DNA from: Chaenocephalus aceratus
Lineage: Eukaryota; Chordata; Actinopteri; Perciformes; Channichthyidae
Assembly: GCA_023974075.1 (NCBI GenBank)
Contig: CM043797.1
Location: 186,001 to 250,000, forward strand
DNA length: 64,000 nucleotides
Direction of reading: 5' to 3'
The translations under genes and the position numbers were made by a program. How positions within the stretch are numbered: the stretch's first letter is position 1; each line of letters starts with the position of its first letter. Below the pieces are notes generated by a model. It was not told where the DNA came from, made no database searches, and worked only from the letters and a program-made list of their open reading frames with translations. Of the stretch, positions 29,173 to 47,034 are shown in pieces.

Positions 29173-29574
29173 ACCTGGTCACGTCACTATACTCAGGAAG
29201 AGGGTACTTTGAGGGTGTGTGACTTTGCAGTCCGTTTACATGCAGAAAAAGCTACATAACACACAAGGGGATGGGTAATAACTGGAAAAGCATGACATGG
29301 GACCTTTAACACAAAAAGTAAGGACATTTGTTTCTGGTAGACAATGTAATGTAATAATGCTTCTTGGCAATACATCTTATACCGTTGGAAAGCCTGTTTA
29401 TTTACCTTTCAAATGGTACCACATTTGTGAGGAACATGCATTAGGATGAGCAGGAGAGCTGAGTATGTGGGTCGCGCCCATACAGAATTTGACAAATATC
29501 CTCTGCCAATGCCAAACAGCTTTTTTTGTGCTGTTGACTCTGGTTAGTTGCACTCTTTGTTAACAATGTATTCA

Positions 29575-30190
29575 TTTAACAAGCAGCCTCAGTAGCGTGT
29601 CGGAAGAACCTGGCATCTCCTCCTCATGCTGTTCACCAGCCTGGTCACACACTGCTGTGGCATCCCATTCTTCAACCAGTTTTTCTCCCAAGGTGATCCC
29701 ACACCTGTTCAATGGGGTTGAGGTCAGAACTACATGCAGGCCATTCCATCCTCTCCACTCCCACACTCTGGAGGAAGTCTGATAGTCCTCGCTCTGTGGG
29801 GGGGAGCGTTGTCATCTTGCAGGATGGAGTTTGGTCCCAGACTGTTGAGATATGGGATTGCCACTGGTTGCATAATTTCATCTCGATATCCCTCTGCATT
29901 GAGATTGCCTCCAATTATTAGAAGCCTGTTTTTTTCAGTGAGGGAGATGCCACCCCACACCATCACACTGCCTCCACCAAAACATGTTACTCTATCAGTC
30001 TCTGCGTCGTCTCCACACTGTGACCCTACATTCCAAGTGCTGTCGGCAGAATCTGGACTCATCGCTGAACATAATGTTCCTCCACATGTTGAGGTTCCAG
30101 TGCAAGTGTACCTGAAGGTGAAGGGCAGTCATGGAAGGCCTCCTGGCAGCCATACGAGACTGGAGATTGGCTGCTGTATGGCAGAGAAGA
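29575..30190 (-). pseudogene. Tc1-like transposase, catalytic part only, frameshifted
   Basis: In three frames on the minus strand, in order: MFSDESRF (first catalytic Asp, near 30060-30085), GGSVMVWGGIS then GPNSILQDDNAPPHRA (second Asp, about 29800-29970), and VERMEWPACSSDLNPIEQVWDHLG (third acidic residue, about 29675-29760). The tail LVEEWDA follows. These are the DDE-type core motifs of Tc1 transposases. At least two frameshifts separate them, and the N-terminal helix-turn-helix half is absent. It cannot encode an active enzyme. Confidence 0.9.
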
Positions 30191-30194
30191 TTTG

Positions 30195-30520
30195 TGTGAC
30201 GACTCCTAGGCCTTAGACTCAGGTCCCTGGTTAGCCACTCCCCAAATCAGGAGAGATTGCTGACACCTGATTTGGGTTGACTGCTCAGCTACAAGTATGG
30301 GTGCCTGAGCAGTCAGTCGATCTCTCCTCTTGGGTTGCTTGGCTCTACTGGACCTTGGTTTGTTTTGTTCTTTCTTTATATACTGATGCATGTTCACACT
30401 ACACACATTACTGATTAACTGACTTCATAGTTAATTTAGTTTCTTTAAATAAATGCACTTCAATTGGATGAATCATGTGTGGTCTCCTTCCTTTGTCCGT
30501 CCTTGAGCCAGGGCGTGACA
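30195..30520 (+). repeat. 5' LTR
   Basis: Starts tgtgacgac and ends gggcgtgaca, the canonical TG...CA. It contains an aataaa polyadenylation signal at 30448-30453 and a possible tata box (tttatatactg near 30375). An internal hairpin-like pair, ccaaatcaggagaga / acacctgatttggg, lies near 30242-30276. It pairs with 33221-33545. Confidence 0.95.
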
Positions 30521-30538
30521 TGGGGGCTCGCCTAAAGT
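30521..30538 (+). promoter_or_regulatory. Primer binding site, tRNA-Pro-like
   Basis: tgggggctcg directly abuts the 5' LTR end, matching the first ten bases of the well-known proline-tRNA primer site used by many retroelements. The remaining bases diverge. Confidence 0.75.
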
Positions 30539-31054
30539 CAAAAGTCAAATTTTGACATACATTTTGTTGGTATGAATTTTCTGTACTAATTTAGGTTAGG
30601 GTATAACACATGGATGTAGTTGTTTTGGAGAGCTTTATTATAATCTAGTTTGGGACAGTTTTCTTTGAGGTAAATATGCTAAATGTTTGGTGTGGCATGT
30701 GACTGGTGTTCTCCTCTGTGAGGCCAAGCAGCAGGTTCTAATAGAGAGTCTGTTGTCGGGGGTTGGGTTTAGTGTGACAGAGAAAGTGGCTAGAGCAGTT
30801 GTCTCGGGATCACGTCCATGGTTTCTTGTGGGGTCGCTTTGTATACAGTTGCTTTCCAGTGCCACTGGGTTTCAGTGAATAAATACCCGCCACAAGTATC
30901 TGTACGAAGACTAGGTACGAGTCTAGTCAGATAAGGGACATACTCTAATGAGTTAGTTGAGCATGGGGAGTCACCAGTTGTTGTTGCCACTAGTTGCATA
31001 GTGTAAAGGTTCGGTGTATGTTACCTCAATGTGGTTATCTAGGTTGCTAGATTT

Positions 31055-32890
31055 TTGTGGTTTGATATGGCTAACATTGTGGAAGATTTTGTTCAGTGTC
31101 CCTCGGCTGAGTTGTGGGAGCAATGTACAAAGGAGCAGTTGGTGAAGATTGCTCATTATTACTCTGTTGATTTTGTTTCCAAGCAAACAAAGGAAACCCT
31201 GAAAAGTGTTATAAAGTCTCATTTGCTAGACTGTGCGGTACTGATGGACAGGGGAGGTAAGAGCATGGTCACTAATTATGTGTCTGGCTTGACATTTGAA
31301 CAACAGGAAAAATTGTTGATTTTGAGGTTAGAACAAATGAAACTGGATTTGGAACTGCACAAATTGGCTTTGATTAGGGCAGGTAAAATGTCTGCATCGG
31401 CAGTGAATGAGGAACTTGTGAGTTCACGCTTTGATGTTGCAAGTAATTTACTGTTGTTGCCAAAGTTTAATGAAAATTATATAGATACTTTTTTTTGTCT
31501 GTTTGAGCGTGTTGCTGATTCAAGGGGCTGGCCTGATGAGGACAGAACTTTAATGTTGCAGTGTGTGTTTACAGGTAAAGCACAAGAAGCCTACTCCGCT
31601 TTATCTTCTGATGCCTGTAAAGATTATGATACGGTGAAATCGTCTGTTTTGAAGGCTTATGAGTTGGTGCCTGAAGCGTACCGCCAACGTTTTAGAGACT
31701 GGCGAAAGAGTGGTAACAAAACACATGTGGAATTTACACGGGATTTGATCTTGCATTTCAAGCGCTGGTACTCTTCTTCTGGTGTAAACACATTGGATCA
31801 GTTATGTGATTTAATCATTCTGGAGCATTTGAAACAGTCGGTCCCTGAGAACATTGTAACCTATATTAATGAACATAAAGTCACATGTCCTAGGGAGGCA
31901 GCAGTACTGGCTGATGATTATGTGTTGATGCACAGGCGCATCTTTGGTGAGCGTTATGAAAGGAATGAATCTCAGAAAGCAGGATCTTTGTCCCCAAAGT
32001 TTGCACAGCATCCTAATGGCACAAGCAATGCAAATGTGTGTAATTATTGCCATCAACAGGGTCATTGGAAAAAAGAATGTCCTTTGCTAGAGGGGAAAAG
32101 CAACAATTTTCGTGTGAAGTCAGTTGGTTTGGCTACAACTGTTCATAATCCCAGAGTTGGTGAAACAGAAGTCTTGGCTCCATTGCAAATGCAGGGTAAG
32201 GCAATTGATATCTCAGAGGTTGAGTCGGGTTATGCTTCGTTTATGTCTGACGGTTTTGTAACCCTAGTTGGGAGTGACAAGAAAGTTCAAGTCAGGATTT
32301 TGAGGGACTCAGGCGCTTTGAATACTTTGGTGAGGGAGGCCATCTTGCCTTTTTCTCCAGATTCAGACATGGGGCGCTGTGTTCGAGGGATTGGTCTGCA
32401 ATCCATTTCTGTGCCTGAGCATAAACTGTTTCTGTCCTGTGATTTGGTCGAGAGAGAAGTGGAGGTTGGTGTTCGTCCAGAGTTGCCCGTGACTGGAGTG
32501 AACATCATTTTGGGAAATGACCTGGCAGGTGGTCGTGTTTGGTCAGATCATGCAAAGCCATTCAGGGGTAAAAAAATAAACATTGCAGGAAAGAGTTTTC
32601 ATGTTAGAGGCGAGGACTGGTTTTGTCCGGATAAGTGTGGAATGATGAACTTTGCTAGAAGAAGCAGTTGTTACAGATATGGCAGGAAGAAACCCATGAG
32701 GGCACAGATGATGAAAGCTGGAGGAACAGAGAGTTGGAAAACTCTGGCTGGGAAGAGCAGGGGTCTCTTCAGTGTATATGATTGGAAGTACAAAACATGT
32801 GGCAATGTCAATTGGGCTAGAAGGTCAGAGTGCAACATTTGTAACACACAGAAGTATGTGAAAGAGAGCTACAGTAACCTCTTTGGGTAA
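31055..32890 (+). CDS. Gag-protease polyprotein fused to ZRANB2-like RanBP2 zinc fingers
   Basis: One uninterrupted frame of 611 codons. Met5 (31067, MANIVEDF) may be the true start. Residues about 200-295 form a SCAN-like helical gag region (YRQRFRDWRK, LCDLIILEHLKQSVPENI, REAAVLADDYV). Residues 329-342 are a CCHC knuckle (C-x2-C-x4-H-x4-C). Asp418-Ser-Gly starts a retropepsin-like domain that ends with ILGNDLAGG at 485-493. From residue 512 (GKSFHVRGEDWFCPDK) to about 602 the protein closely resembles the two RanBP2-type zinc fingers of ZRANB2, including the linker AQMMKAGGTE and WARRSECNICNT. ZRANB2 is a nuclear splicing factor whose fingers bind GGU-containing RNA. Here finger 1 has one residue fewer between its first two Cys and Tyr in place of its last Cys (CYRYGR). 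Finger 2 has Tyr in place of its first Cys (WKYKTC). Binding may therefore be lost. There are no introns in the captured part, consistent with capture through spliced mRNA. The gag and protease calls are firm. The ZRANB2 origin rests on remembered similarity and is very likely. Confidence 0.93.
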   Translation: MWFDMANIVEDFVQCPSAELWEQCTKEQLVKIAHYYSVDFVSKQTKETLKSVIKSHLLDCAVLMDRGGKSMVTNYVSGLTFEQQEKLLILRLEQMKLDLELHKLALIRAGKMSASAVNEELVSSRFDVASNLLLLPKFNENYIDTFFCLFERVADSRGWPDEDRTLMLQCVFTGKAQEAYSALSSDACKDYDTVKSSVLKAYELVPEAYRQRFRDWRKSGNKTHVEFTRDLILHFKRWYSSSGVNTLDQLCDLIILEHLKQSVPENIVTYINEHKVTCPREAAVLADDYVLMHRRIFGERYERNESQKAGSLSPKFAQHPNGTSNANVCNYCHQQGHWKKECPLLEGKSNNFRVKSVGLATTVHNPRVGETEVLAPLQMQGKAIDISEVESGYASFMSDGFVTLVGSDKKVQVRILRDSGALNTLVREAILPFSPDSDMGRCVRGIGLQSISVPEHKLFLSCDLVEREVEVGVRPELPVTGVNIILGNDLAGGRVWSDHAKPFRGKKINIAGKSFHVRGEDWFCPDKCGMMNFARRSSCYRYGRKKPMRAQMMKAGGTESWKTLAGKSRGLFSVYDWKYKTCGNVNWARRSECNICNTQKYVKESYSNLFG

Positions 32891-33209
32891 GATGGGGCAG
32901 GCAAGGGGAGCTTCGTCCCATTCTTCTTGAAGTGTTGGCCGTACAGGCATTCCCCGTTTCGTCCACTAAGCAGCAGTAGTTGCTTTTCCTGGGGTTAGGC
33001 TATAATGATTGCAGGTTTTGTGCACATTTCGGTAGTCACCTCATGTACTTTTTGTCATAGTTCCTTCTTTGCCTAGTATCACTTTTGATAGGCTTATAAT
33101 GCAGTTTGTGTGTGCTCTGAGACGTGTTACTCAGATTTATGAATTGGAAGAAAATGTTGTGTCTAATATTCTTGTTTTGTTTCAGGATCTGAGGTGCTAC
33201 CTCATTCTT
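32891..33209 (+). other. Retrotransposon 3' untranslated segment
   Basis: Between the ORF stop and the polypurine tract. I see no further pol or env coding frame and no obvious continuation of ZRANB2 coding sequence. Confidence 0.6.
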
Positions 33210-33220
33210 AAGGGGGGAGG
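33210..33220 (+). promoter_or_regulatory. Polypurine tract
   Basis: aaggggggagg lies immediately before the 3' LTR start, the expected primer for plus-strand DNA synthesis. Confidence 0.9.
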
Positions 33221-33545
33221 TGTGACGACCCCTAGGCCTTAGACTCAGGTCCCTGGTTAGCCACTCCCCAAATCAGGAGAGATTGCTGACACCTGATTTG
33301 GGTTGACTGCTCAGCTACAAGTATGGGTGCCTGAGCAGTCAGTCTTTCTCTCCTCTTGGGTTGCTTGGCTCTACTGGACCTTGGTTTGTTTGTTCTTTCT
33401 TTATATACTGATGCATGTTCACACTACACACATTACTGATTAACTGACTTCATAGTTAATTTAGTTTCTTTAAATAAATGCACTTCAATTGGATGAATCA
33501 TGTGTGGTCTCCTTCCTTTGTCCGTCCTTGAGCCAGGGCGTGACA
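33221..33545 (+). repeat. 3' LTR
   Basis: Same sequence as 30195-30520 apart from three substitutions (one near position 12, two adjacent near the cagtcagtc segment) and one T indel in the ttgtttt stretch. The aataaa signal lies at 33473-33478. Confidence 0.95.
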
Positions 33546-33744
33546 TTTGTCACATTTTTCATGGGCCCAACCCACATACTTAGCTCTGCTGGTCATCCTA
33601 CAAATGCATGTTCCTCACAAATGTTGAACCATTTGAAAGGTAATTAAACAGGCTTTCCAACAAGATAAGATGTATTGCCAAGAAGCATTGTTACAACAGA
33701 GAAATAATCTACCAAACACACATTTCCTTACTTTTTGTGTTAAC

Positions 33745-36090: not shown

Positions 36091-36450
36091 ATTAACATTT
36101 TAAATATAAGTATATTTGCGAGCACAGCTAGCTACTCTGGTAGTAACGGTAAGTTATGTTGAAGTTCGACTATGTACAGCTAAAATGTGAGGCTTATGCA
36201 AGCATGGTTTATCATAATTGAGTGATATTAAGTATGCCAATATATGATTTTTAACTCTATCCTTGTCCTTGTATTACATTAACATTTTAAACATAGGTAT
36301 ATTTGCAAGCACAGCTAGCTACTCTGGTAGTGATGCAAGAGTAAGTTATCATTGTAATGATGAAGTTGGACGATGTACAGCTAAAATACAGCATGGTTTA
36401 TCATAATTGAGTGATATTAAGTATGCTAAGATATTATTTTAAACACTATC
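36091..36450 (+). repeat. 187-bp tandem duplication upstream of transposase
   Basis: attaacattttaaa at 36091 recurs at 36278 with the following 170 bp (gcacagctagctactctggtag, acagctaaaat, tttatcataattgagtgatatt). It lies in a non-coding leader or intron just before a good splice acceptor (cattcccag, ending near 36479). Confidence 0.85.
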
Positions 36451-36459
36451 CTTGAGCTT

Positions 36460-38882
36460 GTGTCCTTTTCATTCCCAGGCACAACAACAACAACAACAAC
36501 AACAACAACACAACCCACCCCAGGATCCAGCTCTCCTAAGATGCTGCCCTCACCAACTGGTCCCTGCCAGACTAGCAGTCGCAGCCTGGTCTTTGGTCTG
36601 GGCCCCAGCATCACCAGTGAGGATGGCATCATCACCGGCGCCAAACTGCCAACTGGTCGTCAGATCTTACGCTGCATGCTTGCCAAGAAACCTGGTGGAA
36701 ACGGAGCGTTGTCGCAGTTCGAGGCAACCAAGGGTGTCCTGGAGCAGGTGCAGCCATTTTACAAGAAAGCCAACATCCCAATGGTGAGCGACAAGCGTGC
36801 CTGCCACAAGATGGTAGACTTAGTCAATGCTAACAACAAGCTGCGGAAAATCTCCCAGGCCAAGCGCTCCAGTGAGACTACAGCGAAACAATTGTAGAAA
36901 ATGGAGTGCAGACTTGATGCCACATTTCCGCTGTGGCCTCCAAATGTTGAACAGCTGATTGATAACCCAGAAGACCTAGCTTTCTTGGCCAGCATGAAGA
37001 CCGACAGAGTGGCCACATTTGGTGTATTGGACAAAAAGCTGCAGCTCAAGGGGAAGCAGCGAGATGAGCGTCAAGCTGCTGCAGCAGCCAGGCAGTCCCG
37101 CTGTGAAAAGGAGCTGGAGGAGATTACGGCAATGTCCAGCTTGGTGTCGGAGAGTGATGAGGAGCCAGAGGAGGATACTAACATAGTCTGTCCAACATCT
37201 GAGGGCGAACCATCCCACAAGCGTAAGAAGACTGGAACAAACGTCTTCATTCCACATGACATCCTTAGCCGACCAAGTGTTGCGTCACTGGCTACAAGGT
37301 TGAAGATGTCACCAACGCAATAGGCTGTCTTCACGCGTGGCCTGGTTGCAGAGTCAGGCGGTGGATGCACACATCTCTCTGCATCTTACGCAACAGCTGA
37401 CCGAGCAAGACGCCAAGTGCTGGAGACAATCAGTGAGGAACGGCACAAGCAGTGGACACCACCTCCATTGTGCACAAGTTAACACCGATGCTCAGCAATG
37501 TGCACCAGTTGGAGGAGCGTCTTACAGTGGTGGTTGGAGATGCAGAGCGGCTGAAACTGCTTTGTGTTCCGGCGTATAAGAAGCAGACCAATGAGGCATG
37601 TGGAGTGATCATTGCCCGGTTGACATGCAAGTTGCTGCAGGACTGGTGCTGCACTGACCAGGGTGTCAACATGGCATTTTACACCACTGCGTCAAACACC
37701 GGCCATCTCACAGCAGCCTGCATTGCCATACAGCTCTCACTGGACCGACCACTGCTTTGGTCTGGGTGCCGGCACCACATTGGTGAGGTCCTCCTGAACC
37801 AGGTTTTTACAGACCTGAAGGTGGAGATATCACACTCGCCAGAGGTTACCTTGTTCACACGTCTGAGAGAGAAATGGAACCTGTTACCACAATAATCCAG
37901 CAGCCAATGGTCTCGTTACATTCCTGGCAACACCGAGCAACCACTCCTGGGCAAGTTACGTGCTGAACTTGTCAGGTGCGCAAAAGAAGTGACTGACCAC
38001 AAGCGAGGTGACTACCGTGAGTTTGTGCAGCTGTGTCTTGTGTTTCTGGATGCAGGTGGTGAAGAGCAGACTGCAGTGACCTTCCAACGACCGGGAGCGC
38101 TCCACAAGGCACGATGGATGGCCAAGCTGCTCTATACTCTCAAACTGGCTTTGATGAAGCAGCACATCGCATTGCTTCCCCAGGGCACAATTACCACACG
38201 GCAGCAGGTGCCGAAGATTCAGGCATTTGCCATTTTCATTACACACATCTATGCAAAGTGGTAGTTGACCTGCGAGAAATCTGTAGATGCTGCCTGGAAT
38301 TACCTGACACTCTACCACCACCTGCAGGCATATCAAGCTGTAGATGAGGGCATTGCAGCATCAGCGATCAAGGCACTGGAGAGGCATCGCTGATACCTGA
38401 CAGGTGAGATGCTACCCCTGGCTCTCTTCAGCAGCAAGGTGCCCAATGAGGACAAGCGTGCACTTGCCAGTGCGATCTTGGAGCACAAGCCCGATGATCT
38501 CCCCATGCACATCCCTGAGCAGCGCTTTGGCACTGGCTTTGGCAAGCCAACATTCCCCACCCTCTTGCCAACCACCAGCTTGGCTGATCTCGCCAATAAG
38601 GATTGCTGGTTTGGGATACACCAGCTGCACATTGATCCAGAATGTATGTCTCTCGATGTGAAGGAATGGGCGACCAATGATGCGTTCAAAAAAAGTGAGG
38701 TCAATGTATGTGCAATGAATGTGGTTAATGACTGTGCCGAGCGTGGCGTCAAGCTCACGTCCGACTTCGTCACAGTAGCCAGGAAGGAGCAGCACCTGCA
38801 GAATGTGCTGCAGGCAGTTGAACATGACCGCAGCCAACAGCCAAACCTTCACCGCTGCAAACACAAGGTAATCGCAAGTTAA
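36460..38882 (+). pseudogene. Putative transposase, broken by stops and a frameshift
   Basis: A (CAA)n stretch follows the acceptor. Frame 1 then runs from about 36480 to 37450 with in-frame stops at 36895-36897 and 37321-37323. A frameshift near 37440-37455 moves to frame 3, which continues to 38882 with further stops at about 37893 and 38262 and a gap near 38390. Segments include MVSDKRACHKMVDLVNANN, a Glu/Asp-rich acidic region with a KRKK nuclear-localisation-like cluster (about 37160-37230), then TTASNTGHLTAACIAIQ, followed by WSGCRHHIGEVLLNQVF (about 37680-37810) and a long C-terminal region with NKDCWFGIHQL. The NTG...CRHHxxE pattern could be an RNase H-like DDE core with a zinc-binding CxHH; this is inference. 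All large open frames between the two terminal repeats are in one direction and read as one protein. Confidence 0.7.
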
Positions 38883-44076: not shown

Positions 44077-46522
44077 TTCATTTAATTTCAAACCTTTATT
44101 TAGACAGATAGGTCTCTTGAGATCATGGATCTCTTTTACAAGGGAGACCTGCATCAATTTAGTTCCACATGAAACATAAAAACAACATAAAAACAAACAA
44201 TAGAGGACATCATATTTACATATTCACCGACACTTACAAACACCCATAGTGTCCGAAAGCATCTCGTGCAGACGTGCCTTAAAAACATTCAGATAAATAA
44301 AATTGCTCAATTTTAAATTTGGACTGTAGGCTGTTCCAAGCAAGTGGAGCTGCGCACATAAAAGCCGTCTCACTCTTGGCACATCTAAGAAGACCACATC
44401 CTGCGATCTCAGACAATAGCTGCCCGCAACTTTCTGCTTTACCAGAGAACAGATGTAATACGGGAGTTTTCCCAACATAGCTTTATAAATAAAAGTGTAC
44501 CAGTGACTGAGCCTCCGTACAGAGAGTGATGGTAAACCTGCCTTGGTATACAGTGTACAGTGATGTGTAAGCACTTTACAATTTGTGACAAATCTCAGTG
44601 CACTGTGATACGCAGCATCTAACTTGACCAGGCAATGGGCAGGTGCATTCATATAGACCAGATCACCATAGTCCAGCACAGGTCAAAAGGTCACAGTGTC
44701 CATCAAAATGAACACATTGGGACCTTTCAGAGAGGTAGTTCACAAACCACCCCACTGCAAGGCCGGATATGCCAATACTGAGTAGCCTCTGCTTTAAAAT
44801 GCGATGATCAATGGTGTCAAACGCTTTGGAAAGGTCAATAAACAGATCTGCTTGTCGCAGTGATGGTGCTGTGTTTCTTTCTGAATCCTGACTGATGTTT
44901 AGACAGGATATCATTTATACATAAAAAACTCCTTTACTTGTTCACTCACAAGTCGTTCAAGCACCTTAGCCAGAACTGACAATTTAGAGATTGGCCTATA
45001 GTTATTTAAAATAGTTGCCTCCCCTCCTTTCAGTAAAGGCAAGACATAAGCAGACTTCCATACTTTTGGAATTGCATTTGTGCTGAGGGAGAGGTTAAAA
45101 AGAGAAGTAAGAGGTGGAGCAATAAAATCTGCAGCTATCTTTAAAAAGAAAGGTTCTAAGTTGTCCGGGCCAGCCGGTTTCCTAGGATCTAACTTGGATA
45201 ATGCTTCATGAACAATACCAATAGTTAAAGGAGTAAAACTGAAAGGGTTTTCCAGACCACATTGTTCAGAGTCAAGGATTGGAGCATTCACAGAAGCAGA
45301 AGTACAGTCAGTGACAGAATCAAACAGAGAGCCACAAGACACAAAATGCTTATTAAAGCAATTTAGCATAGTAGCCCTGTCTGATATAATGCCTATGCTG
45401 TGGTAAGGCACGGAGGTAGCTCATTTGGGATATCACCAGTTGAAATCGATTTTATGGCTTTCCAAAATGTCCTATGATTATTCAGGTTTTCTGTGGTAAC
45501 CGACAAATAGTACTTTGATTTAGCACTTTTTATTTGAGATGTGAAGCTATTTCTTAGCTGCCTAAAACGCAGCCATTCTACCTCTGAGCCTGATTTCCTA
45601 GCCTTAGCCCAGGCCTTGTTTCTCTCATGAAGTAGACTGGACAGCTTAGCAGAAAACCAGGGATTGTTTCAGTCCCTTCACTCTAAATGTACGCAGAGGT
45701 GCATGTCTATCTATAATTTTCATAAAACCAAGATAAAAAATAAGACCATGCAGTTTCTAAATCAGCACACAGATTGATTTTACCGCTATCAAAATCAAAC
45801 AAATCATGTAAAAAACCCTGCTCCACAAAGTGTTTTTTGTCTCTCTTTGTGATGATACGTGGTTTAACCTTTTGGACCTTAGTGTCCCTAATTGTGGCTA
45901 CAACACAGTGGTCACTCACATCATTAGCAAATACTCCCACAGATGAGTATTTATGTGGAACATTTGTTAAAATTAGATCAATTAAGGAGGATTTATTTGG
46001 GGACTTCATATTTGGGCGAGTAGGACTGTCTATAATCTGGGTAAAATTCAAAGAGGTACACAGGTTTTTAAAATCCTCTGACACAGAAGTTAACCAGTCC
46101 CAATTAAAATCACCAAGCAGCACTATTTCCTTGTAGGAAAGTTGTGATAACAGTTTTGCCAATGACGATAAAGAGTCCTTGACAGCCGAGGGGGCCCTGT
46201 AGCAGCCCACCACCATGACCTGTTGACCCTTTGTTACCTCAATATTCACGGCTAAACATTCTAGCTGTTTACTAACAGATTTGGAAACCATATTAGTTAC
46301 ACAAAACTTATTTTTCACATAAATGGCAACGCCACCACCTTTTTTAGGCCGGTCAGTACGATATACACTGTAACCATTTATGTAAATGTCAGAGGCCAAA
46401 ATGGATTTATCTAGCCACGTTTCTGATAAGACAATGACATCAGCATCAGTCGAACTCGCCCAAATACGGACAAAATCTAATTTAGGTAACATACTACGCA
46501 CATTTAAATGAATTAAACCTAG
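44077..46522 (-). pseudogene. CR1/L2-group LINE, near-complete endonuclease and RT
   Basis: On the minus strand, 46576-45707 encodes an APE-type endonuclease of about 260 residues: LIHLNVRSMLPK, then SETWLD (catalytic Glu region), RTDRPKKGGGVAIYV, VVGCYRAP, LLGDFNWDW, and NDVSDHCVV (catalytic Asp-His). Its apparent Met lies in the flanking LTR. Then 45411-44911 gives LDPRKPAGPDNLEP and NNYRPISKLSVLAKVLERL, and 44914-44663 gives FIDLSKAFDTIDHRIL. The frame 44679-44224 is the C-terminus ending LNVFKARLHEML. Stops and frameshifts lie between the frames and part of the RT core is missing. The 3' end (ataaaggtttgaaattaaatgaa) abuts the duplicated cctata. The same family's 3' end recurs at 54740-55895. 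Confidence 0.9.
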
Positions 46523-47034
46523 CCTATATATAACCTTCTCACTTACACTCACTGACCCAGATACCAGCACACACACATATTCTTTTCAAGGTTCCTTCTG
46601 GGGCCAATATAATATCTGTGTACAATGTTTGATTGTCTGGGAGAGAATAGTTTGTGTCAAATATTCTTGGGAAAGTAAAGGAGTGAATTCAGGTGCAAGA
46701 TAAAGATTGACTCTGTCCTTGTTTACTTCCGAAGCTCTCAGGCTGTGTTCAGAAGTAAATTACTTTTTCCCAGAACTCTGATTCGCTGTATTGGGCCCGA
46801 CCCGAAGTGAATCCAACCAGTGAGAACACCTAGGGGAGTGAGCAACCGCACAACTCCTCCCCACGGACTCTCTGATTTGCTTAGGAGTGAAATCGACCAA
46901 TTAGAGATTTGGGGGGGGCAGAGTTGTTGTTGGTTGCTCCCAAGCGGCAAACTCTGGGGAACAGCCGGGAAACCAATACGGAAGTGCCACACACTGCAGT
47001 TCATACATGGGCCGCTAGGGACTGGCTGCAGAAA

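What the first reader, a model, noticed from the sequence alone, without database searches (positions are those of the whole stretch)
32588..32862. Host ZRANB2-like zinc-finger cassette captured in-frame by an LTR retrotransposon
Seen: the gag-protease frame of a complete LTR element continues without interruption from ILGNDLAGG into GKSFHVRGEDWFCPDK and on through AQMMKAGGTE to WARRSECNICNT. Known: this order and wording match the N-terminal half of ZRANB2, a conserved nuclear splicing factor with two RanBP2-type zinc fingers, starting essentially at its second residue. Inference: the element took up a spliced zranb2 transcript by template switching during reverse transcription, replacing pol. 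The process is analogous to oncogene capture by acute retroviruses or to maize Bs1; I know of no described Gag-Pro-ZRANB2 fusion. An RNA-binding module on Gag could alter RNA packaging or bring splicing-factor targets to the particle.
Basis: partly seen in the sequence, partly recalled or inferred. Interest (0 to 1): 0.93.

Follow-up and report, generated by a model that had tools for sequence, protein, structure and literature searches.

The report
Jumping element carrying stolen splicing-factor fingers
A fish retrotransposon without a reverse transcriptase gene carries, fused to its coat protein, two RNA-binding zinc fingers copied from a spliced messenger RNA of the host splicing factor ZRANB2, and this hybrid has spread to dozens of places in the genome.

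Summary
The finding holds. Window 30195-33545 is a 3.35-kb SCAN-Gag gypsy-type LTR element (LTRs 99% identical, TSD TTTG). Its Gag-protease frame runs into the two RanBP2 fingers of ZRANB2; pol is absent. Host zranb2 in the same genome has three introns in this stretch, the element none, and about 26 nt of zranb2 5'UTR are read in frame: a spliced mRNA was captured. Of 40 copies compared, 26 have paired LTRs, 0-6% diverged. Of 38 Gag matches above 55% identity, 36 have the cassette within 1 kb. Four autonomous relatives lack it. An older relic keeps a longer zranb2 piece: the capture is old and was trimmed.

New: (a) in 18 of 24 full-length open copies none of 22 zinc or RNA-contact residues changed, while about a third of the others did, so the fingers were probably used; (b) the window copy has lost two zinc ligands; (c) a related element of unnamed source fused an hnRNP-type RRM after its protease. 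Function, extra RNA binding by Gag, is inferred. Capture is a known kind of event; this is a new variant.

The parts
30191..30194 (.). target-site duplication TTTG, left
30195..30520 (+). 5' LTR (TGTGACGAC...GTGACA)
30521..30530 (+). primer binding site TGGGGGCTCG; that this is of tRNA-Pro type is recalled, not tested; same ten bases in relatives L068-L071
30531..31066 (+). leader; 63-66% identical over 177-204 nt to the leaders of four autonomous relatives
31067..32890 (+). Gag-protease-ZRANB2 fusion ORF (first ATG 31067; mechanical ORF 31055-32890, 611 codons)
31670..31933 (+). SCAN-type Gag domain (PF02023, 2.1e-12)
32036..32083 (+). CCHC zinc knuckle (below Pfam cut-off, motif intact)
32288..32524 (+). 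retroviral-type aspartic protease (weak RVP match below cut-off, DSG motif)
32556..32858 (+). segment derived from spliced zranb2 mRNA: about 26 nt of 5'UTR (19 of 26 bases match), former start codon at 32582-32584 (now ATT), then codons 2-95
32615..32680 (+). RanBP2-type finger 1; fourth Cys replaced by Tyr in this copy; one Lys codon fewer than host at the exon 1/2 junction
32780..32842 (+). RanBP2-type finger 2; first Cys replaced by Tyr in this copy
32891..33209 (+). 3' untranslated tail of the element
33210..33220 (+). polypurine tract
33221..33545 (+). 3' LTR
33546..33549 (.). target-site duplication TTTG, right

Best explanation
A gypsy-type SCAN-Gag element of a teleost took up part of a spliced zranb2 mRNA downstream of its protease region, in frame, and lost pol (shown for structure and intron loss; the route, template switching or read-through transduction, is inferred). 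The hybrid became a non-autonomous family that spread by ordinary LTR retrotransposition (shown), probably with reverse transcriptase and integrase supplied by an autonomous relative (inferred). After the capture the two fingers were kept under purifying selection for a time, most likely because they gave Gag a second, GGU-type RNA-binding module that helped it bind or package RNA (inferred; about 45% likely). Individual copies, the window's included, are now decaying.
For: Host zranb2 exons 1-4 with three introns against one uninterrupted frame. Host 5'UTR in the element. Paired LTRs in 26 of 40 copies, divergence 0-6%, median 0.9%, identical 4-bp flanks in 17 of 26 and 5-bp in one more. A finger motif in 38 of 39 fetched copies; these were chosen by the cassette, so the unbiased figure is the Gag search: 36 of 38 matches above 55% identity have the cassette within 1 kb, and no match running past the junction (residue 282 of P0011) exceeds 51%. 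Four autonomous relatives with 100% identical LTRs share the LTR start, primer site and a purine tract. Core finger residues in L020: 0 of 22 changed against 24 of 70 others (p=0.0004); against host codons 7 synonymous and 0 nonsynonymous in the core, 19.5 and 30.5 elsewhere (p about 0.003); no core change in 18 of 24 full-length open copies, median dN/dS to host zranb2 0.20. ZRANB2 fingers each bind GGU single-stranded RNA (PMC6384913, passages). A separate Gag-Pro-RRM fusion in a related element.
Against: Within the present family the captured part looks neutral: pooled pairwise pN/pS 1.13 over 24 copies; variants shared by at least 3 copies are 10 nonsynonymous to 1 synonymous, against 33:22 in Gag and protease (difference p=0.08 two-sided). 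Part of the dS between host and element belongs to the host branch, so 0.20 is not the element's own ratio. The core test is in effect one evolutionary path, the copies not being independent, and I chose the core residues after seeing the alignments. GGU is not enriched in the leader (18 seen, 18.5 expected). The predicted fold was of low confidence (mean pLDDT 50). LTR bodies and tails of the possible helpers show no significant similarity to ours (best E 0.06), and helper use was not tested.
Confidence: 0.78

Rival explanations
1. The capture is real, but the fingers are passengers: a chance insert that survived by hitch-hiking in a non-autonomous family, with no function in Gag.
For: Variation in the captured part within the present family looks neutral; the window copy and several others have lost ligand cysteines, and two open copies lack one through an in-frame deletion; no GGU enrichment in the leader; the insert sits at the end of the frame, where it does least harm.
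Against: No core residue changed in 18 of 24 full-length open copies, while about a third of the others did; the frame stayed open over a long time: host-element dS about 0.8, and the relic's tail and LTR are 19-22% diverged from the window's.
Confidence: 0.35
2. Same product, other route: a provirus just upstream of zranb2 produced a read-through transcript that was spliced and packaged, and only the 3' join came from template switching (the classical retroviral transduction model, recalled).
For: The 5' join lies in the host 5'UTR, where read-through from upstream would enter. Crocodilian ERVs are described with captured host mRNAs (PMC4299795, passages).
Against: No element next to zranb2 was looked for. 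A join within short homology fits template switching, and in P0069 the pol linker of a relative and fish hnRNP-like sequence share an acidic stretch at the join.
Confidence: 0.3
3. The fingers are an old part of the Gag of this clade, and ZRANB2-likeness is convergence or an ancient shared domain.
For: None found beyond their presence in nearly all copies of this family here.
Against: 78-80% DNA identity to host zranb2 over 94 codons across the exon joins, plus 5'UTR; no finger motif in four autonomous relatives, none in P0003, P0004 and P0011.
Confidence: 0.02
4. The locus is a host gene: a domesticated Gag-ZRANB2 fusion.
For: Open 611-codon frame in a young insertion.
Against: 40 scored places with the cassette and paired LTRs in 26 of 40; this copy lacks two zinc ligands; it sits between inverted arms with Tc1-like remains (by eye).
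Confidence: 0.03

Closest known systems
Crocodilian endogenous retroviruses with captured KIT-ligand and nectin3 mRNAs (PMC4299795; passages read)
   Same: Host mRNA inside a multicopy LTR element, with signs of purifying selection reported
   Different: There nectin3 replaced env and KIT-ligand came without loss of an ERV domain; here an RNA-binding module is fused in frame to Gag-protease and pol is gone
LTR-mediated retroposition, including maize Bs1 and retrocopies in zebrafish (Tan et al., as told in the review PMC5408686; passages read)
   Same: mRNA joined to an LTR element, with template switching at short similarity as the proposed mechanism
   Different: The passages read describe retrocopies; here the host part is a C-terminal extension of Gag-Pro in a family of about 40 copies
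ZRANB2 (ZNF265) N-terminal fingers, PDB 2k1p, 3g9y, 1n0z
   Same: Both fingers, the linker between them and the RNA-contact residues
   Different: Lacks the acidic and RS parts; one Lys fewer in finger 1; fused to Gag-Pro
P0069, Gag-Pro with an hnRNP A/B-D type RRM (ENA protein without a name)
   Same: Related SCAN-Gag element, same place of fusion (after the protease), also an RNA-binding domain of a nuclear RNA-processing factor
   Different: Different host gene, different Gag lineage (42% identity over 68%), not found in this genome
Autonomous SCAN-Gag gypsy elements of the same genome (L068-L071)
   Same: LTR start, primer site, purine tract, part of the leader, Gag order
   Different: Long frame with a reverse transcriptase motif, no fingers; LTR bodies and tails not significantly similar

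Membership tests
LTR retrotransposon | paired LTRs, primer site, polypurine tract, target-site duplication | tested here: met
Ty3/gypsy, SCAN-Gag lineage of fishes | Gag and protease related to gypsy elements with SCAN-type capsid | tested here: met
   best named hits are fish SCAN-box, gypsy or retrovirus-related proteins
Ty3/gypsy, SCAN-Gag lineage of fishes | pol with reverse transcriptase and integrase in gypsy order | tested here: not met
   only 330 nt lie between the stop codon and the 3' LTR, no reverse transcriptase or integrase domain in the frame; so not autonomous, a pol-less derivative
Host-gene-capturing retroelement (transduction or LTR-mediated retroposition) | host sequence without introns inside the LTR unit | tested here: met
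Host-gene-capturing retroelement (transduction or LTR-mediated retroposition) | chimera itself has moved (several insertions with own target duplications) | tested here: met
   26 of 40 with paired LTRs, 17 of 26 with identical 4-bp flanks
RanBP2-type RNA-binding zinc finger | four Cys ligands per finger | tested here: inconclusive
   met in most open copies (of 24 full-length open copies each ligand is Cys in 23 or 24); not met in either finger of the window copy, nor in finger 1 of two copies with an in-frame deletion
RanBP2-type RNA-binding zinc finger | binds GGU single-stranded RNA | not testable with these tools
   contact residues conserved; no binding data

The most novel reading that the evidence does not exclude
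In SCAN-Gag gypsy elements of fishes, the end of the protease region is a landing site at which RNA-binding modules of nuclear RNA-processing factors (ZRANB2 fingers here, an hnRNP A/B-D RRM in P0069) were captured independently from spliced mRNAs at the cost of pol and kept by selection, because they improve RNA capture by a pol-less Gag that parasitises autonomous relatives.
Probability: 0.35. Interest if true: 0.87.

Novelty: new variant of a known kind. Interest (0 to 1): 0.74.

Why it matters
Capture of host genes by retroelements is known. Here the captured piece is an RNA-binding module joined to Gag itself; it is found in nearly all copies of its family, its key residues were spared while the rest changed, and a related element did the same with another RNA-binding domain. 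That makes the question of whether Gag can acquire RNA-binding modules from host splicing factors directly testable, with a natural series: host gene, older relic with a longer insert, young copies. Searches for papers joining ZRANB2 with retrotransposons (7 papers, all listed) or with Gag and retroviruses (393 papers, 8 listed) and Gag with hnRNP or RRM capture (7 papers, all listed) showed no title or abstract describing either fusion; of these papers only passages of PMC3384923 were read.

Tried and rejected
Old Gag feature: rejected. Generic RanBP2 fingers: rejected. GGU enrichment in the leader as a packaging signal: not found; AGGTAA (3 seen, 0.35 expected, 2 of 300 shuffles as high) and GGTAA (5 of 300) are somewhat frequent in gag-pro, but these are 2 of 24 comparisons in that call. 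Fold prediction of the captured part: low confidence, not used. Relatives in viral contigs: none. A pol-linker piece of P0011 found nothing in the genome, an uninformative negative. Gag-RRM fusion in this genome: not found (34 matches, 150 of 245 candidates scored; Gag-side and RRM-side matches always apart). One search, a comparison of leader and tail with known proteins, was cut in print after the ZRANB2 hits and says nothing about pol. One search's inverted repeat I1 is taken as arms of a decayed Tc1-like element, not as part of the finding.

Full report
OBSERVATION. The window holds a complete LTR unit, 30195-33545. The LTRs differ by 3 substitutions and 1 indel and are flanked by TTTG on both sides. 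One frame, 31055-32890 (first ATG 31067), carries SCAN-type Gag (2.1e-12), a CCHC knuckle, a weak retroviral protease match with DSG, and then two RanBP2-type fingers. No pol follows: 330 bases of tail lead to the 3' LTR. The fingers match solved ZRANB2 fingers. In a search of 5.8 billion proteins with this part of P0001, 189 of 206 candidates passed; of the 120 listed, P0001 leads and most others are named ZRANB2.

CAPTURE OF A SPLICED mRNA. The host zranb2 gene lies on contig C4 of the same genome. Over the captured part it has four exons with introns of 673, 99 and 212 bases at codons 19, 37 and 73, each beginning GT and ending AG; the element runs through all three joins. Homology begins about 26 nt before the host start codon (19 of 26 bases match), so 5'UTR is read in frame with the protease, and the start codon is now ATT. 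It ends near codon 95. A lysine codon is missing at the exon 1/2 join in every open copy. Intron loss plus 5'UTR point to RNA as the source. The parental element's bases at the 5' join were not available, so the exact join is uncertain.

A FAMILY, NOT ONE LOCUS. DNA search with the cassette gave 40 scored matches at 93-100% (55 candidates), the window included. I fetched the other 39. Of the 40, 26 have measurable paired LTRs: divergence 0-6%, median 0.9%; 17 of 26 show identical 4-bp flanks and one more 5-bp. Two pairs share flanks and are probably the same insertion on two contigs, so at most 38 are distinct. In 26 of 40 the captured frame is open, in 24 of them at full length. Protein search with zebrafish ZRANB2 1-101 gave 64 matches (71 candidates, all scored): four are the host exons, one is the relic below, most of the rest coincide with known copies; several places, such as C7:8861206 and C76, were not examined.

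NO PARENT WITH POL FOUND HERE. With P0011, a related Gag-Pro-linker protein of unnamed source, matches to the fused family are at about 70% and end at or before residue 282, the junction; no match running beyond 282 exceeds 51% (108 matches, 107 of 1309 candidates scored, so copies were missed). Of the 38 matches above 55% identity, 36 have the cassette within 1 kb; C2076 has none detected, and one 70-residue piece (C17:8078278) belongs to a frame of a distant family. L060, a high match not's list, is fused too, and its fingers are cut off by other sequence. Of five further stretches fetched, four (L068-L071) hold elements with 100% identical LTRs starting TGTGACGAC, primer site TGGGGGCTCG, a purine tract before the 3' LTR, a long frame with YLDD, no finger motif, and another linker after the protease; the fifth (L072) gave no LTR pair. 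Their leaders are 63-66% identical to ours in part; their LTR bodies and tails are not significantly similar. They are possible helpers; help itself is inferred.

AGE AND TRIMMING. Contig C13:11310000-11311350 holds a relic: tail 81% and LTR 78% identical to the window's, with zranb2 sequence closer to the element (90% over 77 bases) than to the gene (79% over 85). Read by eye against zebrafish ZRANB2, it continues for about 16 further codons before it reaches the same 3' join. So the first capture was longer, and the main family arose after a deletion between two short AAGAGAG repeats (my reading of the two sequences). dS between host gene and element is about 0.83, with few sites (about 53) and near saturation. 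The capture is therefore much older than the present LTRs.

SELECTION. Against zebrafish ZRANB2, the copy L020 has 0 of 22 core residues (Cys ligands, D, W, F/W, A, RR, N) and 24 of 70 others changed, p=0.0004; over the 26 open copies the p-values run from 0.00009 to 0.039, the weakest being L054 and the window copy, with 2 core changes each (there the alignment hides a lost Cys of L027). Against the host gene, the core codons of L020 show 7 synonymous and 0 nonsynonymous changes, the rest 19.5 and 30.5 (p about 0.003); 18 of 24 full-length open copies have no core change. Median dN/dS over the 24 is 0.20, but it includes host-branch synonymous changes. I drew up the core set from the finger pattern and PMC6384913 after seeing the alignments, so the test is not blind. 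Against this: within the family pooled pN/pS is 1.13, and variants shared by three or more copies are 10 N:1 S in the captured part and 33 N:22 S in Gag-protease (p=0.08 two-sided, 0.046 one-sided; Gag-protease alone differs from neutral, p=0.003). Constraint on the fingers may have eased in the young family. The window copy itself has lost two ligands.

A SECOND CASE. The RRM matches hnRNP D-like (1.5e-42) and hnRNP A/B (9.7e-35) in the PDB, and is 75-78% identical to two unnamed fish gene models with hnRNP-like RRMs. That search could see only proteins of 459-1459 residues and found no other Gag-RRM fusion. In G000 the three best host RRM exons stop at query residues 151-153, while P0069 reads on to about 171, as expected of a spliced source; the donor was not seen. 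At its join, the pol linker of a relative (P0081, Merluccius) and the hnRNP-like sequence share a short acidic stretch, as template switching at short homology would leave. P0069 was found among 120 listed of 826 relatives; the other 706 were not seen.

HOW IT MOST LIKELY WORKS. Shown: fusion, intron loss, spread, lack of pol. Inferred: transcription from the LTR, a Gag-Pro-finger protein that co-assembles with or is served by an autonomous relative, and fingers adding GGU-type RNA binding to the CCHC knuckle. ZRANB2 fingers bind GGU with micromolar affinity (PMC6384913, passages). GGU enrichment of the leader was tested and not found, so a specific packaging signal is not supported; general RNA affinity remains possible.

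LITERATURE. Passages were read of PMC5408686, PMC4299795, PMC6384913 and PMC3384923. Other papers were seen only in search listings.

Noticed in passing
P0069: Related SCAN-Gag-protease protein with an hnRNP A/B-D type RRM fused after the protease: a second capture of an RNA-binding domain.
   Followed up: partly
L074 and L075 (G000 C13:11310000-11311350): Old relic of the same element with a longer zranb2 insert; tail and LTR about 20% diverged.
   Followed up: yes
window 29350-30194 and 33546-33695: The element seems nested in a decayed Tc1-like transposon (inverted arms 29350-29449 and 33596-33695; transposase-like remains on the minus strand, by eye).
   Followed up: partly
window 36201-36461: Two 72-nt direct repeats, 189 bases from start to start, 90% alike.
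   Followed up: no
window 45707-46576 (minus): 289-aa frame resembling an endonuclease of a LINE-type element (by eye).
   Followed up: no
P0042: SCAN-Gag joined to cep104 domains in a gene model of Pseudochaenichthys georgianus; may be a gene-model artefact.
   Followed up: no
G000:C7:8861206-8861454: ZRANB2-like fingers (67%, codons 3-91) in a 281-codon frame, not among the copies fetched.
   Followed up: no
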